From Candidatus Hydrogenedentota bacterium (GTDB lineage Bacteria > Hydrogenedentota > Hydrogenedentia > Hydrogenedentales > JAEUWI01), in assembly GCA_016182605.1 (NCBI GenBank), contig JACPGE010000106.1, positions 62,001 to 126,000 on the forward strand: a stretch of 64,000 bases of DNA. The letters are read 5' to 3'. Of the stretch, positions 27,367 through 46,867 are shown in pieces. The position numbers and the translations under genes are program-made. Within the stretch, counting starts at the first letter, position 1. The number at the start of each line of letters is the position of its first letter. The notes below the pieces were generated by a model. It ran no database searches, was not told where the DNA came from, and was given only the letters and a program-made list of their open reading frames with translations.

Positions 27367-29784
27367 ATGTTTTATTCGACGACCCGGAAAACATTTTGCA
27401 GCCTCCTCTTTTTTGTCCTGGCCGGCGCTACCGCCGCCGCGGAGAAGCCGCTGGTGCTCTGGTATGACGCGCCCGCGGAGAACTGGGAGACCGAGGCGCT
27501 GCCGCTGGGCAATGGCCGGCTGGGCGCGATGGTCTTTGGCGGGCCCGCGCACGAGCGCATCGCGTTGAATGAAGACACGCTGTGGTCCGGCGGACCGAAA
27601 GATTGGAACAATCCCGACGCGAAGACCTGGATTCCCGAGGTGCGCCGGCTCATTGACGCGGGGGAATATGAAGCCGCGGACAAGGCCGCGCAGAAAATGC
27701 AGGGCCCATTCACGCAATCGTACATGCCTCTCGGCGATCTGCTCTTAGAGTTCCCCGGCCTGGGCGGGGTTTCGGCGTACCGGCGCAGTCTGGATCTCAA
27801 CACCGCCACGTGCTCGGTATCGTTCAATGCCGGAGGCGTGGACTACCAACGCGACTATATTGCAAGCCATCCCGCGGATCTCATCGCTGTGCGCTTCACC
27901 GCGTCCCGGCCCGGCATGATTTCCTTCGACTTGGGCCAGACCAGCCAGCTTCGCGCGCAGACCCAGGCGGAGGCTGGCGGACGGCTCATCATGCGCGGCA
28001 AAGCCCCTGCGCACGTGGATCCCAACTACCACGACAAGTCCAAGGAACCGGTGATTTACGAAGAGGACGGCGGAGAGGGCATGACTTTTTATGGCGAGGC
28101 GCGGGTCCTGCAGGAGGGCGGAACGGTGACACCCGATGGAGAGCTGCTGCGGGTGCGCGATGCCAATGCGGTCACGCTGCTGTATGCGGCGGGCACGAGC
28201 TTCAACGGCTTCGATCGATCGCCGGGACGGGATGGCATCGATCCGTCGCTTGCGCCGCAACAACGGCTGGATGCGGCGGCAGGTGTGGCGTGGGACACGC
28301 TCCTGAGCGAACATGCGAAGGACCATCAGGCCCTGTTTCATCGCACCGCGCTCGATCTGGGGGGTGTGCCCAACACGGCCCCCACGAACGAGGTGATCGC
28401 CGCATTCCGGACGAACCGCGATCCGTACCTCGCCGAACTGCTCTTTCAATTTGGGCGCTATCTCATGATTGCCGCCTCGCGGCCGGGATCCCAGCCCACG
28501 AACCTGCAAGGCATCTGGAACGACAAGCTGCGGCCGCCCTGGAGCAGCAACTATACGGTCAACATCAACACGGAAATGAACTACTGGCCCGTGGAGAGCG
28601 CCAACCTCGCCGAATGCTTTGAGCCCTTGCTGCGGATGGTGGAAGAGGTCTCGGTGACGGGACGCAACACGGCCGCAACCAACTATGGGCTCGACGGCTG
28701 GGTGGCGCATCACAATGTGGATTTGTGGCGGCACTCTTCGCCCGTGGGCGACCTCGCAGGGGACCCCGTGTGGGCCAACTGGCCCATGGGCGGCGTGTGG
28801 CTTTGTCAGCCCGTGTGGGAGCACTACGCCTTCAGCCGTGACGAACAGTATCTGCGCGAGCGCGCCTGGCCGCTCATGGAAGGCGCGGTGCGCTTCTGCC
28901 TGGGCTGGCTCTATGAGAACAAAGACGGCTACCTGATCACGTCGCCCTCCACGTCGCCCGAGCACAAGTTCAAGACGCAGGGCGGGCAGCAGGCGGCCGT
29001 GAGCGCGATGACGGCCATGGATCGCAGCCTGATCTGGGACCTGTTCACCAATTCCATCGAGGCGCTGGATGTGCTCGGCATCGAGCCGGCATTGCGGGAG
29101 CGCATTGCGGCGGCGCGCGAGAAGCTTCTGCCCTTGCAGAAGGGCCCCCAGGGCGAACTGCTGGAATGGAGCCACCCCTGCGTGCCGGAAGACCCGCACC
29201 ACCGCCACATGTCGCATGTTTTCGGGTTGCACCCGGGGCGGGAGTTCACGCCAGAGACTTCCCCCGAGTGGTACGAAGCGGCGCGTCAGGCGGTGCTGCT
29301 GCGTGGCGATGAAGGCACGGGATGGAGCCTGGGGTGGAAGATCAACCTGTGGGCGCGCCTGCGCGACGGCGATCATGCGCACCGCCTCATCGAATATCTG
29401 CTCACGCCCGCGGGCACCAAGAGCAACTATCAGCGCGGCGGCATCTACGCGAATTTCCTCGACGCCCATCCGCCCTTTCAGATCGATGGCAACTTCGGCG
29501 CCACAGCGGGTATCGCCGAGATGCTGCTTCAGAGCCATGCAGGGGCGATTCATTTGTTGCCGGCCTTGCCCGCGAATTGGCCGGCGGGTTCGGTGACCGG
29601 TTTGCGCGCGCGGGGCGGGTTCACGGTGGATATTTCTTGGGCGGAGGGCAAGCTGGCGTCCGCGGCGATTCGCGGCCCGGAAGGCGCAACGGTGGTCTTG
29701 CGGTGTGGCGATGTGGAGAAGACCATGCCCATGCCGAATGGACAGATTTTACGGGTGAGCGATCCGGCGCTGAACGCGGGTTAG
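27367..29784 (+). CDS. Glycoside hydrolase family 95 protein (alpha-L-fucosidase type)
   Basis: 805 aa. A signal peptide ([16 protein letters not shown]) predicts export. The N-terminal beta-domain has the GH95 opening [14 protein letters not shown] and [10 protein letters not shown]. The (alpha/alpha)6 domain carries [19 protein letters not shown] (Asn399, Asn401), SPSTSPEH (Glu532 as the likely general acid), [11 protein letters not shown] and [10 protein letters not shown] (Asp707). These match the catalytic Asn-Asn-Glu-Asp set of GH95, which removes alpha-1,2-L-fucose (some members alpha-L-galactose) by inversion. The TAG stop lies in the first bases of the adjoining intergenic repeat. 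It is divergent from the MBL operon across 177 bases. Confidence 0.93.
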
Positions 29785-29992
29785 CCCGGATAAATCACGG
29801 GCTCCTAACAATGTAGTCTTAACACCCACTCACACATATCGTTATCCCAACTTCAAATCTGGGAATGACAAACAACCCGTGATTTAGCCTGCCCGGTGAA
29901 CGCCAGCACTATCGCCACGCTGAGCAGATTTCACCACGTGGCCAATCCGAATGTAATCTGGAGGCCTCAGAGTGGTGAAATATGCGGGTTAG
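29781..29992. mobile_element. Two-hairpin intergenic repeat, copy A (MITE-like)
   Basis: A 204 bp body is bounded by TTAG on both sides. The end sequences CCCGGATAAATCAC and, inverted, CCCGCATATTTCAC match at 11 of 14 bases, like terminal inverted repeats. Inside are two hairpins: CCCGGATAAATCACGGG (29785) with its partner near 29876, and GCAGATTTCACCAC (29924) with its partner at 29972. The core between them (TGCCCGGTGAACGCCAGCAC onward) is almost identical to copy B at 46655, while both loops differ. No coding capacity. It separates two convergent genes and provides both of their stop codons. Confidence 0.75.
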
Positions 29993-31848
29993 CCCGGCAG
30001 CAGGCGTTCGCGCACCACGTAGATCGTTTCCCGAAGCGAAGGCACCGCCAGGGGCGCGATGGAAACGGCAACCGGGCCGCCATCCACGCAGGTACCGGCG
30101 CCGTGCCACGCCGTGCCGGCGGCGCGTTGTGCGTCGAGCTGCATGTAGAAATCCGGCGCATCAGGCCGGGTGAGGCTGTGCAGCGATCTGCCCAGCGCCT
30201 CGGTCTCACTCAGGCCCGACATGCGTTCATAGCTGCGGTTCATATACAACACCCGCCCGGAACTTGTGCACAGCAGCACGCTTTCCTCACTGTTCTCCAC
30301 GACGGCGGCAAGCCGTTTGGCTTCTTCCACTGCGCGCGTTCCCGCCGTGATGTCCCATTGCATGCCCCACGCGCTAACGATGGAATTCCCCTCGAGATCG
30401 GCCGAGAAAGAGAGCAGCACCGTAATGGGTTCGCCCGTGGGCAGGACAAAGCGGGCTTCCTCGCTGTCCAACTGATAACCGCTCTTGATAAAGCGCGAGA
30501 TACGCCCGCGCACCTGCGCCTCCGGCTCCCGCCAGATCTCCAGGAGCCGGAGCCCCTGCACGGCATCCCGGGATGCGAATCCGTGAAGGCGGGCAAAGGC
30601 CGCATTGCAGAGCGCCACGCGCGCGTGTTCGAAGAGGTGCTGGGTCTGCTCTTCCGGCGGGGCCGTAATATTCAGCGGGGGGGCGATGTCCATGCGCACG
30701 ATGCCCTGCCCGGTCAGATCCAGGAAGCGGTGCAGCCGCGCGTCGCTGCGTTGCAGGTCTGTTTCCAGCGCCTTCTCGCGCGACAGGTCGATCAGCACGC
30801 CCTCGATGTGCTGGGCAAGCCCGGCGTCGTCATAGATGGCCCGGCCCCGATCGCGCACCCACCGTTCTCCGCCATGGGGCAGGCACAGCCGGTAGCTCAC
30901 GTCAAAATCCGCGCCCTGTTCCATCTGCCGCCGAATCTCATCATAGACAGCCGCGCGCTCGTCTTCGTGAATGAGTGAGGCAAAGGCTACCCCCCGATCT
31001 TGAATCATCGCTGCAGCTTCCACGCCGGTGAGTTCGGCGACGGCGCCCTCCAGGCGTTGCATGGTGCGTGCCGCGCTGCAGGCGCATGAGTAGCGCACCG
31101 CATCCAACTGCGTCAAGAGAATCCCTGCCGGGCCCTCGGAGGAAGCGCTGCCAGATCCCGCAGGCTGGCAGGCACTGCGGACCAGCACGCTGCCTGCAAG
31201 CAGCAGCGCCCCCAGCGCCGTCTCTTGCAGCGGGAAGAGGAAGGGCCCCCGGAGGGAGGCGAATCCTTCGAACACAGCGCAGACGAGGGCCACGAGAAGC
31301 GCCAGGACCGCCCACCGGGTGTCCACGCCGTGCAAGCGCCGCCGCAGATCGCCCAGGGCCATTGCCGCGCAGCCGTAGAACAGAGCCGGTGCGGTCCAAT
31401 AGAGAAACGCCAGGGGATTGGGCCTGCCATCGGCAAGCGCATAGTGCGCGCCATCCACCAGCGGGACTTGTACCAGCCCAAACACATACTCGTAGCGCAG
31501 GGTGAAGGGCTGGAGGAGATTAAGCACGATACACGAAAGGGCAAGCACTGCGGTCAGGGCATGCATGGCCCCGGTGAGGCCACGCGGCCGCTGGACGAGG
31601 AGGGGCAGAAATAACGCCAGTGCCGCCAGGTGCGTGGCGAGGTTCCAGCGCAGGAAAAGCATATGGTCTTCAATCGTTTCGCTGGAGAGGGCGAGGCCCA
31701 TGCTGACGAAACTGAGCAGGGCCGCGCACGCGAACAGGCTCAGGTGCAGCCGCAACGGGTGCACGGAGCCCTGGCGGTAGAGGCGCGCATGACGCACCGC
31801 AATCCACAGCGCCATGCCAGCCAACGATCCCAGGTACAGCGTTAACAA
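29989..31848 (-). CDS. Membrane-bound PAS-domain sensor without an output domain
   Basis: 619 aa if translation starts at TTG, eight bases after AAGGG. The open frame runs further upstream, but that part crosses a palindromic repeat and then lies antisense to the LmbE gene. The N-terminal half has about seven hydrophobic segments (SLAGMALWIAV, CAALLSFVSMGLAL, LAALALFLPLLV, TAVLALSCIVLNLL, and others). At least three PAS/PAC modules follow (FDVSYRLCLPHGGERWVRDRG; HRFLDLTGQGIVRMD; ENSEESVLLCTSSGRVLYMNRSY). It ends after the last PAS with no kinase, GGDEF or HTH. Probably an environmental sensor or a shortened signalling protein; its stop codon lies in the repeat. Confidence 0.75.
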   Translation of the reverse strand: MLTLYLGSLAGMALWIAVRHARLYRQGSVHPLRLHLSLFACAALLSFVSMGLALSSETIEDHMLFLRWNLATHLAALALFLPLLVQRPRGLTGAMHALTAVLALSCIVLNLLQPFTLRYEYVFGLVQVPLVDGAHYALADGRPNPLAFLYWTAPALFYGCAAMALGDLRRRLHGVDTRWAVLALLVALVCAVFEGFASLRGPFLFPLQETALGALLLAGSVLVRSACQPAGSGSASSEGPAGILLTQLDAVRYSCACSAARTMQRLEGAVAELTGVEAAAMIQDRGVAFASLIHEDERAAVYDEIRRQMEQGADFDVSYRLCLPHGGERWVRDRGRAIYDDAGLAQHIEGVLIDLSREKALETDLQRSDARLHRFLDLTGQGIVRMDIAPPLNITAPPEEQTQHLFEHARVALCNAAFARLHGFASRDAVQGLRLLEIWREPEAQVRGRISRFIKSGYQLDSEEARFVLPTGEPITVLLSFSADLEGNSIVSAWGMQWDITAGTRAVEEAKRLAAVVENSEESVLLCTSSGRVLYMNRSYERMSGLSETEALGRSLHSLTRPDAPDFYMQLDAQRAAGTAWHGAGTCVDGGPVAVSIAPLAVPSLRETIYVVRERLLPG

Positions 31849-31910
31849 TGATTCAACCCTTGAAGACAGAGCCGACAGAAGTCCGGGCTCCTTGAAATCC
31901 GCGCAGGATT

Positions 31911-31958
31911 CTACATCCCCCTTAATCCCCCTTCGAAGGGGGACCAAGGGGGATGTAG
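31911..31958. repeat. 48 bp palindromic repeat (REP-like)
   Basis: CTACATCCCCCTT, AA, an 18-base central palindrome (TCCCCCTTCGAAGGGGGA), CC and AAGGGGGATGTAG form a near-perfect dyad. This C5TT/AAG5 type of repeat is widely seen between genes in diverse bacteria. It lies in the 363-base divergent region between the PAS sensor and the LmbE gene, where I found no gene and no convincing promoter. Confidence 0.85.
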
Positions 31959-32211
31959 ATTTTGGAGCAAGTTCTACTTTTGCCGGCCTCGCCCTTGTAA
32001 GCGAAGTAATGGGACAAGAAATTCTGCCGCGTTGTGACACGGAGGGCGTCCGGCCCACCCTGCCGGCCCGCGGCACAGGCAGTCTAGGCAATTTGCGCGG
32101 GGGAAGCAAATCCATGCGGCGTTTGGCAGTGCAATTGAAACATGTAAAGGTGTATCTTGGTCTCGTTACAGCATCGCTAGATGGTCCGCAACAGGAAAGG
32201 AACCCGCCGCC

Positions 32212-33072
32212 ATGCTCCGCCGAACTTTGCCGGCCCTTGCCATTCTGGGCCTCGTGATTCTGGGCGCTGGGCCCGCCAATGCCCAGCCCATCTCGGCAGA
32301 TCTCGTTAATCCCGTCGAGGTGGCGTACGCCGATCGGGTGGAGAAGCTTTCGGGCAAGTCCATTCTCGTCTTTACGCCGCACCCGGACGACGAAACGTTT
32401 TCGATGGGCGGCACGCTGGCGGTGCTCGCAAAGAACGGGAACAAGATCACCATCGTGATCTACACCAACGACAACAAGGGTTCCCTCGACCAGGAAATGA
32501 CCAGCGAACGGCTCGCCCGGATTCGCCGCGCGGAAGAGGAGAAGGCGTGCGAGATCCTGGGTATTGCCCAGGAAAACATCGTCTGGCTCGGCTATGAAGA
32601 CGGCGACTTGGAATATGCCGATCCCCAGCGGCTGCGCGGGGAGGTGGCCCGCCAGATCAAGATTCACCGGCCAGACGTGGTCTTCTCGCCCGATCCCGGC
32701 GCGAAATGGGAACAATGGCACAAGACCGATCACCGCATGTCCGCATTTATCACGAAGGACGCCTTCATCGCGGCGGAGTGGCACCTCTATTATCCGCAGC
32801 ACCTGCTGGACGAGAAGCTTCAGCCCTACCAAGTGCCGCTGGTCTACCACTACTATTCCCACGAACCCAACTACGAAGTTGACGTGACCGAGGTCTTCGA
32901 TTTGAAAACCCGTGCCGCCGCGGCGCACGTATCCCAGTTTGAACCTTCGACCAGCAAGTACACCCCCGACATGCCGGAACTGGTGGCGAAGGAAATCGAC
33001 AAGGGATTCCGGGAGCGCAATGCAAGCAATGGCCGGCTCGTGGAACGATTCCGCCGCGAAGTGGCGCCCTGA
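32212..33072 (+). CDS. Exported LmbE/PIG-L family deacetylase
   Basis: 286 aa with AAAGGAA ahead of the ATG. A Sec signal peptide (LAILGLVILGAGPANAQ) is followed by the family's metal and catalytic motif TPHPDDETFSMGG near residue 57. RRAEEEKACEILG, VVFSPDPG and KTDHRMSAF (likely third metal-ligand His) follow. PIG-L/LmbE enzymes remove N-acetyl groups from GlcNAc-type substrates with zinc. The signal peptide places this one outside the cytoplasm, so a glycan or cell-surface sugar is more likely than a cytosolic thiol precursor. It converges with the TrhO gene 18 bases away. Confidence 0.9.
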   Translation: MLRRTLPALAILGLVILGAGPANAQPISADLVNPVEVAYADRVEKLSGKSILVFTPHPDDETFSMGGTLAVLAKNGNKITIVIYTNDNKGSLDQEMTSERLARIRRAEEEKACEILGIAQENIVWLGYEDGDLEYADPQRLRGEVARQIKIHRPDVVFSPDPGAKWEQWHKTDHRMSAFITKDAFIAAEWHLYYPQHLLDEKLQPYQVPLVYHYYSHEPNYEVDVTEVFDLKTRAAAAHVSQFEPSTSKYTPDMPELVAKEIDKGFRERNASNGRLVERFRREVAP

Positions 33073-35346: not shown

Positions 35347-35580
35347 AATGCGGACTGCCGGAAATGGCGCCAAATTTTCGTGCAGTATTGATTTCGCATG
35401 CGCCTTTCAAGACTTTCTACCTGTTTGATGGGATGCAGGCGGGTACTTCGACGCGGAATGCCTACGCTCATCGAGCGAAGGCCTACTTTGGTGGCGTGTC
35501 TGATGGTAGCACGCTGCCCGCCGAGCGGCGTGATTTGGGGTGCGGCGGCAAAAGTTAGCGCCATTCCAGTCTGACGGGCA

Positions 35581-46654: not shown

Positions 46655-46867
46655 CTAGCCCGGATAAATCACGGGCTCCACGCGTTCGTTCCGTAACTCC
46701 TTCTTGGACCCGCAATTGCCGCAACATGCTCGGCGGTATCGCCGGACAGCCCGTGATTTATCCTGCCCGGTGAACGCCAGCACCATCGTCACGCTGAGCA
46801 TATTTCACCACCTTCCAAGTCGAACTCGTTGCCAAGAAGCCTTGAAGTGGTGAAATATGCGGGCTAG
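46655..46867. mobile_element. Two-hairpin intergenic repeat, copy B (MITE-like)
   Basis: A 205 bp body is bounded by CTAG on both sides. The first hairpin pairs CCCGGATAAATCACGGGCT (46659) with AGCCCGTGATTTATCC (46748); the second has a perfect 14 bp stem, GCATATTTCACCAC (46798) with GTGGTGAAATATGC (46847). The 38-base core after CCTGCCCGG differs from copy A at 29781 in two positions, while the hairpin loops are unrelated. It fills half of the 409-base divergent gap between murQ and the DprA-like gene; the remainder shows no gene. Confidence 0.75.

What the first reader, a model, noticed from the sequence alone, without database searches (positions are those of the whole stretch)
29781..29992. 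A two-hairpin, MITE-like intergenic repeat with conserved stems and free loops (copy A of two)
Copies at 29781 and 46655 share terminal sequences (CCCGGATAAATCAC in and GTGAAATATGCGGG out), two hairpin stems and a 38-base core differing at two positions, yet their loops are unrelated. Each copy is flanked by its own matching tetranucleotide (TTAG twice here, CTAG twice in copy B), as expected of a target duplication of type YTAG. Stem pairing kept while loops drift points to selection or a transposition mechanism acting on structure. Caution: similarity continues about 10 bases past the right flank (CCCGG-CAGCA), so the true border may differ.
Basis: partly seen in the sequence, partly recalled or inferred. 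Interest (0 to 1): 0.7.

Follow-up and report, generated by a model that had tools for sequence, protein, structure and literature searches.

The report
Two-hairpin MITE moved by IS1380 transposase
The repeat is a small, gene-less jumping element (about 205 bases, well over a hundred related ends in this genome) whose ends and target sites match those of a common bacterial transposase family (IS1380), so it is a good but essentially ordinary example of a parasite that borrows another element's enzyme.

Summary
Observation confirmed: the repeat is a 204/205-bp mobile element, 29785-29988 (copy A, TTAG on both sides) and 46659-46863 (copy B, CTAG on both sides). The genome carries 179 right ends (at most 1 mismatch). 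54 of the 73-74 full copies compared have identical 4-bp flanks, mostly YTAR, although YTAR is strongly depleted in this DNA. A paralogous unoccupied site supports the border. Another family of the same order (G041) has 146 right ends with the same terminus, a different interior and YTAR flanks. The likely enzyme source is an IS1380-family IS: complete in a relative (G006), and in the own genome as left and right ends at four contig ends, body unassembled. Its right end matches the repeat 17/17, its left end 12/16. Named IS1380 relatives in many phyla have similar ends and YTAR flanks. So this is a type I MITE. The right hairpin also occurs alone with its own duplications (five cases). Ordinary in kind; the modular anatomy is the interesting part.

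The parts
29781..29784 (+). left target-site duplication TTAG of copy A; its TAG is also the stop codon of the GH95 gene 27367-29784
29785..29988 (+). copy A of the MITE, 204 bp (loop-1 lineage 3, loop-2 lineage 1)
29788..29803 (+). stem 1, 5' arm = left terminal sequence (CCCGGATAAATCACGGG begins at 29785)
29874..29889 (+). stem 1, 3' arm = inverted internal copy of the left end (one A.G mismatch, shared by most copies)
29890..29923 (+). conserved linker between the two hairpins
29924..29937 (+). stem 2, 5' arm = inverted internal copy of the right end
29972..29985 (+). stem 2, 3' arm = right terminal sequence; GTGGTGAAATATGCGGG (29972-29988) is identical to the right end of the genome's own IS1380 element
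29989..29992 (+). right target-site duplication TTAG of copy A; its complement supplies the TAA stop of the convergent ORF 29989-32928
46655..46658 (+). left target-site duplication CTAG of copy B
46659..46863 (+). copy B of the MITE, 205 bp (loop-1 lineage 1, loop-2 lineage 2)
46864..46867 (+). right target-site duplication CTAG of copy B
35427..35539 (+). paralogous unoccupied version of a repeat that in contig C10 (L041) is split by a full MITE copy at CTAG: the empty-site comparison

Best explanation
The repeat is a non-autonomous miniature transposable element (type I MITE). An IS1380-family DDE transposase, from full-length IS copies in the same genome, most likely recognises its ends (CCCGGATAAATCAC... 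and ...GTGGTGAAATATGCGGG), excises it and inserts it at YTAR tetranucleotides, duplicating the 4 bp. Each end has an inverted copy inside the element, which makes the two hairpins; the right hairpin alone, with its inner copy turned into a proper CCCG end, also moves as a 68/69-bp element. Shown: copy number, borders, duplications, target preference, ends shared with the IS, stand-alone and composite derivatives, mosaic loops. Inferred: that this transposase does the moving, the cut-and-paste chemistry, and that the conserved linker and inner arms matter for transposition.
For: 179 right termini in the genome; 54 of 73-74 full copies with identical 4-bp flanks, 46 of them YTAR although YTAR is about 9-fold depleted in the window. 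Empty site for copy L041. Complete 1712-bp IS1380 elements in relative G006 (NF033539 E 1.2e-118, PF13701 E 1.7e-152) with ends CCCGGAAATTTCACGG / GGTGGTGAAATATCCGGG, flanked by YTAR. Own genome: IS1380 left ends at contig ends C99 and C118, both breaking at the same base, with the N-terminus MNTECSASQLEFQGFGSRK; right ends at contig ends C94 and C126 with GGGGTGGTGAAATATGCGGG|YTAR and what reads as the transposase C-terminus. Named IS1380 relatives from many phyla mostly begin YTAR|CCCGSATWTCTCAC and, where the right end was found, finish GTGAGAWATSCGGG|YTAR. G041 has 146 termini of the same sequence with another interior and YTAR flanks.
Against: The IS1380 body is not assembled in the own genome (PF13701 finds nothing), so an intact transposase there is not shown. 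MITE and IS share only the termini (left end 12 of 16 positions), so descent from this IS by deletion is not shown. The two complete IS copies in G006 have YTAR on both sides but not identical ones (TTAG/CTAA and CTAG/TTAG). G041 has no PF13701 hit in its assembly either.
Confidence: 0.92

Rival explanations
1. The repeat is a structured RNA or DNA element (sRNA, cis-regulator, REP-like element) kept for a cellular function, and its two hairpins are under selection as structures.
For: Stem and linker diversity is far below loop diversity; folding energy z-scores are -3.3 to -3.8; three different MITE interiors have inverted repeats next to the right end.
Against: No compensatory change in 30 pairs over 68 copies, and pairs are broken without repair. 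No Rfam match at the gathering score. The copies are flanked by target duplications and the shared part is the IS end itself.
Confidence: 0.08
2. It is an element of the IS200/IS605 or REP/RAYT kind: single-strand transposition guided by hairpins beside a tetranucleotide.
For: Hairpins beside a conserved tetranucleotide, head-to-tail pairs about 209 bp apart.
Against: True 4-bp duplications that differ from copy to copy but match within a copy, inverted CCCG/CGGG ends, and ends shared with a DDE (IS1380) element. From general knowledge the IS200/IS605 family makes no target duplication. No search for Y1 (tyrosine) transposases was made.
Confidence: 0.02
3. A different transposase family with the same YTAR target (for example IS701 or the IS5 group) moves it.
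For: From memory these families also make YTAR 4-bp duplications. An IS1182-type transposase next to C94 has CTAG beside its ends too.
Against: No PF13546 (DDE_5) match in the genome. The C94 neighbour's ends (GGTCCGGCCAGAAA) do not resemble the MITE ends, whereas the IS1380 right end matches 17 of 17.
Confidence: 0.04

Closest known systems
IS1380 family insertion sequences (PF13701, NF033539)
   Same: Terminal sequences CCCG..TCAC / GTGA..CGGG and YTAR flanks
   Different: The repeat has no transposase gene, is 205 bp instead of about 1.7 kb, and has an unrelated interior with two hairpins
Type I bacterial MITEs (moved by the transposase of an IS with the same inverted repeats; term as used in PMC3542288)
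   Same: Short, gene-less, many copies, ends shared with a resident IS, target duplications
   Different: Each end has its own inverted internal copy, so the element is two joined hairpins of which one also moves alone; mosaic loop lineages
piggyBac superfamily (TTAA target; IS1380 used as outgroup in PMC10813416)
   Same: Ends often begin CCC and the target is a 4-bp TTAA site; minor piggyBac sites include TTAG and CTAA (PMC10813416)
   Different: Eukaryotic; relation to this element only through the IS1380 transposase and not tested here
REP/BIME and ERIC intergenic repeats
   Same: Intergenic, hairpin-forming, many copies
   Different: Here there are clear 4-bp duplications and IS-type ends; no sequence relation was tested

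Membership tests
MITE (type I) | short, no coding capacity, many copies | tested here: met
   204/205 bp; 179 right ends at <=1 mismatch
MITE (type I) | target-site duplication at the borders | tested here: met
   54 of 73-74 full copies identical at 4 bp
MITE (type I) | terminal inverted repeats | tested here: met
   imperfect in the 205-bp form (CCCGGATAAATCAC / rc CCCGCATATTTCAC); near-perfect in the 68-bp form L249
MITE (type I) | same ends as an IS in the same genome | tested here: met
   right end 17/17, left end 12/16 positions against IS1380 ends at C94/C126 and C99/C118
MITE (type I) | empty sites without the element and with one target copy | tested here: met
   one paralogous site, window 35427-35539 against L041, with a 3-base indel at the joint; no orthologous site available
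MITE (type I) | mobilised in trans by the IS transposase | not testable with these tools
   needs a transposition assay
IS1380 family (as the source of the enzyme) | DDE_Tnp_1_4 / NF033539 transposase between these ends | tested here: met
   G006 L153 2954-4665
IS1380 family (as the source of the enzyme) | intact transposase in the own genome | tested here: inconclusive
   only the two ends are assembled
Structured RNA element | compensatory base changes in the stems | tested here: not met
   0 of 30 pairs, 68 sequences
IS200/IS605 or REP/RAYT | no target duplication | tested here: not met
   4-bp duplications present
IS200/IS605 or REP/RAYT | Y1 (tyrosine) transposase with these ends | not tested
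   no search for such a gene was made
IS701 family | DDE_5 (PF13546) transposase | tested here: not met
   no match in the own genome

The most novel reading that the evidence does not exclude
A modular MITE in which both transposon ends were duplicated in inverted orientation, so that each half is a potential element of its own: the right half moves alone (five 68/69-bp cases with duplications), a third form joins a left end to a right-half element and has moved as a unit (two loci with different flanks), and loop lineages are exchanged between copies. The conserved linker and inner arms could be internal transposase or host-factor sites that raise transposition frequency.
Probability: 0.3. 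Interest if true: 0.45.

Novelty: new member of a known kind. Interest (0 to 1): 0.33.

Why it matters
It gives IS1380, a family related to eukaryotic piggyBac, a high-copy MITE system with clean YTAR duplications in at least two genomes from different families of one bacterial order. That allows target choice, end requirements and copy-to-copy exchange to be measured by sequence comparison alone. For annotation it warns that hairpin repeats with variable loops need not be RNAs. My literature search in the open-access library found no description of an IS1380 MITE, but that library is incomplete.

Tried and rejected
IS701/DDE_5 as enzyme source: no match. The IS1182-type transposase beside C94: different ends. 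Rfam: nothing at gathering score; two weak sub-threshold hits. Insertion at stop codons as a special preference: copy A sits exactly in the stop codons of two convergent ORFs, but 25 of 73 copies against 23 of 53 ordinary YTAR sites in the window lie at the end of an ORF of at least 80 codons, so this follows from where YTAR occurs. Exact hairpin pattern in genome contigs and terminus in viral contigs: no hits (the own genome may be left out there). Core search in 60 genomes (own plus relatives): only the own genome, so this interior is confined to it among those tested. A left-hairpin-only element: one doubtful match (L017), not a free element.

Full report
What is there. Copy A is 204 bp (29785-29988) between two TTAG, copy B 205 bp (46659-46863) between two CTAG. 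From left to right: left end CCCGGATAAATCACGGG; loop 1; inverted internal copy of the left end (CCCGTGATTTA[T/G]CC); a conserved linker; inverted internal copy of the right end (GCATATTTCACCAC); loop 2; right end GTGGTGAAATATGCGGG.

How many. In the own genome (6.76 Mb, 130 contigs) the right terminus occurs 179 times with at most 1 mismatch and 0 times for the reversed control; the terminus plus YTAR occurs 150 times with at most 1 mismatch. Among 74 full copies extracted (73 after one spurious row is dropped), nearly all 204 or 205 bp, 54 have identical 4-bp flanks: TTAG 21, CTAA 11, CTAG 9, TTAA 5, CTAT 4, ATAG 2, CCAA 1, CTAC 1. YTAR is rare here: 65 sites in the 64-kb window against about 565 expected from base composition, so the preference is strong. 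Flanking bases outside YTAR show little more than a C after it.

Empty site. The flanks of copy L041 (contig C10), joined with one target copy, match a dispersed repeat that is unoccupied in the window (35427-35539, 87%) and in L052 (83%); element and border coincide with the CTAG, apart from a 3-base indel at the joint. Orthologous sites were not compared, because no genome of the same genus appeared among the relatives.

The loops. Loop 1 falls into three lineages (40, 21 and 11 copies; 38-57% different from each other) and loop 2 into two (38 and 34; 55% different), alignable almost without gaps. All six combinations occur, so copies are mosaics. Copies A and B carry different lineages at both loops, which is why they looked unrelated. 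Mean pairwise difference is 1-3% in the terminal arms and 8% in the inner arm plus linker.

The stems. In 68 distinct copies and 30 pairs there is no change on both sides of any pair; 57 of 68 copies share an A.G mismatch at pair 6-104 and 10 lose pair 146-198. Folding is better than in shuffles (z -3.3 to -3.8), as expected of any inverted repeat. The data therefore show conserved sequence, not selected structure.

The enzyme. PF13546 is absent. Following right ends without a hairpin led to contig ends C94 and C126, which share 146 bp at 99-100%, and to two complete 1712-bp elements in G006, a genome of the same family. Their 476-aa protein is an IS1380 transposase (NF033539 E 1.2e-118; PF13701 E 1.7e-152). 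The own genome has the left end of such an IS at contig ends C99 and C118, both broken at the same base, and the right end at C94 and C126: I infer at least two copies whose body was not assembled. The right end is identical to the MITE's over 17 bp; the left end agrees at 12 of 16 positions. Among named IS1380 relatives from Chloroflexi, Hydrogenedentota, Planctomycetota, Proteobacteria and others, most show YTAR|CCCGSATWTCTCAC or close to it at the left and, where found, GTGAGAWATSCGGG|YTAR at the right.

Other architectures. Right-hairpin-only elements of 68/69 bp with identical flanks: L047 (TTAG), L104 (TTAG), L243 (TTAG), L246 (CTAA), L249 (CTAG), with loops of both lineages. A 106/107-bp composite (left end plus part of loop 1 plus a 68/69-bp element) sits at two loci with different flanks, CTAA and TTAG, which suggests that it moved as a unit. 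A 65-bp internal deletion is flanked by CTAT (L066). Head-to-tail pairs about 209 bp apart share one YTAR, and L089 shows an insertion at a TTAA inside loop 1 of an older copy.

Other genomes. G041, another family of the same order, has 146 exact termini with a different interior of about 177 bp and YTAR flanks, and G048 has a short version with its own stem. This supports one end-and-target system used by several MITE families.

Mechanism. Shown: ends, target, duplications, copy number, derivatives. Inferred: the IS1380 transposase binds the shared ends, cuts the element out and joins it at a 4-bp staggered YTAR. The piggyBac superfamily, for which IS1380 serves as outgroup, uses TTAA with occasional TTAG and CTAA (PMC10813416), which fits. 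Conservation of linker and inner arms across copies that differ at half of their loop positions suggests they matter to the copies that transpose, but other causes (gene conversion, recent common sources) are not excluded.

Copy A and genes. Copy A lies exactly in the overlapping stops of a GH95 gene (27367-29784, PF22124 E 2e-170) and a convergent PAS-domain ORF (29989-32928 minus); the duplication leaves each with its own stop. The 979-aa ORF's start is uncertain. This position is not enriched beyond YTAR sites in general.

Noticed in passing
window 27367-29784 (+) and 29989-32928 (-): GH95 glycoside hydrolase gene and a convergent PAS-domain ORF end in the two TTAG copies of MITE copy A; before insertion their stop codons would have overlapped in one TTAG.
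   Followed up: yes
window 1-64000: CTAG, TTAG and CTAA are about 9- to 20-fold rarer than base composition predicts (11, 13, 13 against about 220, 122, 143).
   Followed up: partly
window 35427-35539: Dispersed repeat, also in contigs C10 and C5 (L041, L052), coding-like; function not examined.
   Followed up: partly
L105 5861-7750 (-): Transposase with PF13751/DUF772 domains (IS1182-like) whose ends GGTCCGGCCAGAAA/TTTCTGGCCGGACC lie beside CTAG, next to an IS1380 right end.
   Followed up: partly
L119-L138 (genome G041): A second MITE family with the same ends but another interior (about 177 bp, GC-rich inner hairpin, alternative right-end hairpin CCCCGCCACGGCGGGG), 146 exact right termini in a 3.6-Mb genome.
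   Followed up: partly
L155 around 1561-1650 (genome G048): Short element CCCGGATTCCTCAC...GGCGGTGAAATATGCGGG between TTAG and TTAA with its own right stem.
   Followed up: no
L103/L245 (contig C99 start): An IS1380 left end directly adjoins the CCTGCCCGGTGAACGCC part of a MITE copy, as if the IS had inserted at the TTAG inside stem 1.
   Followed up: no
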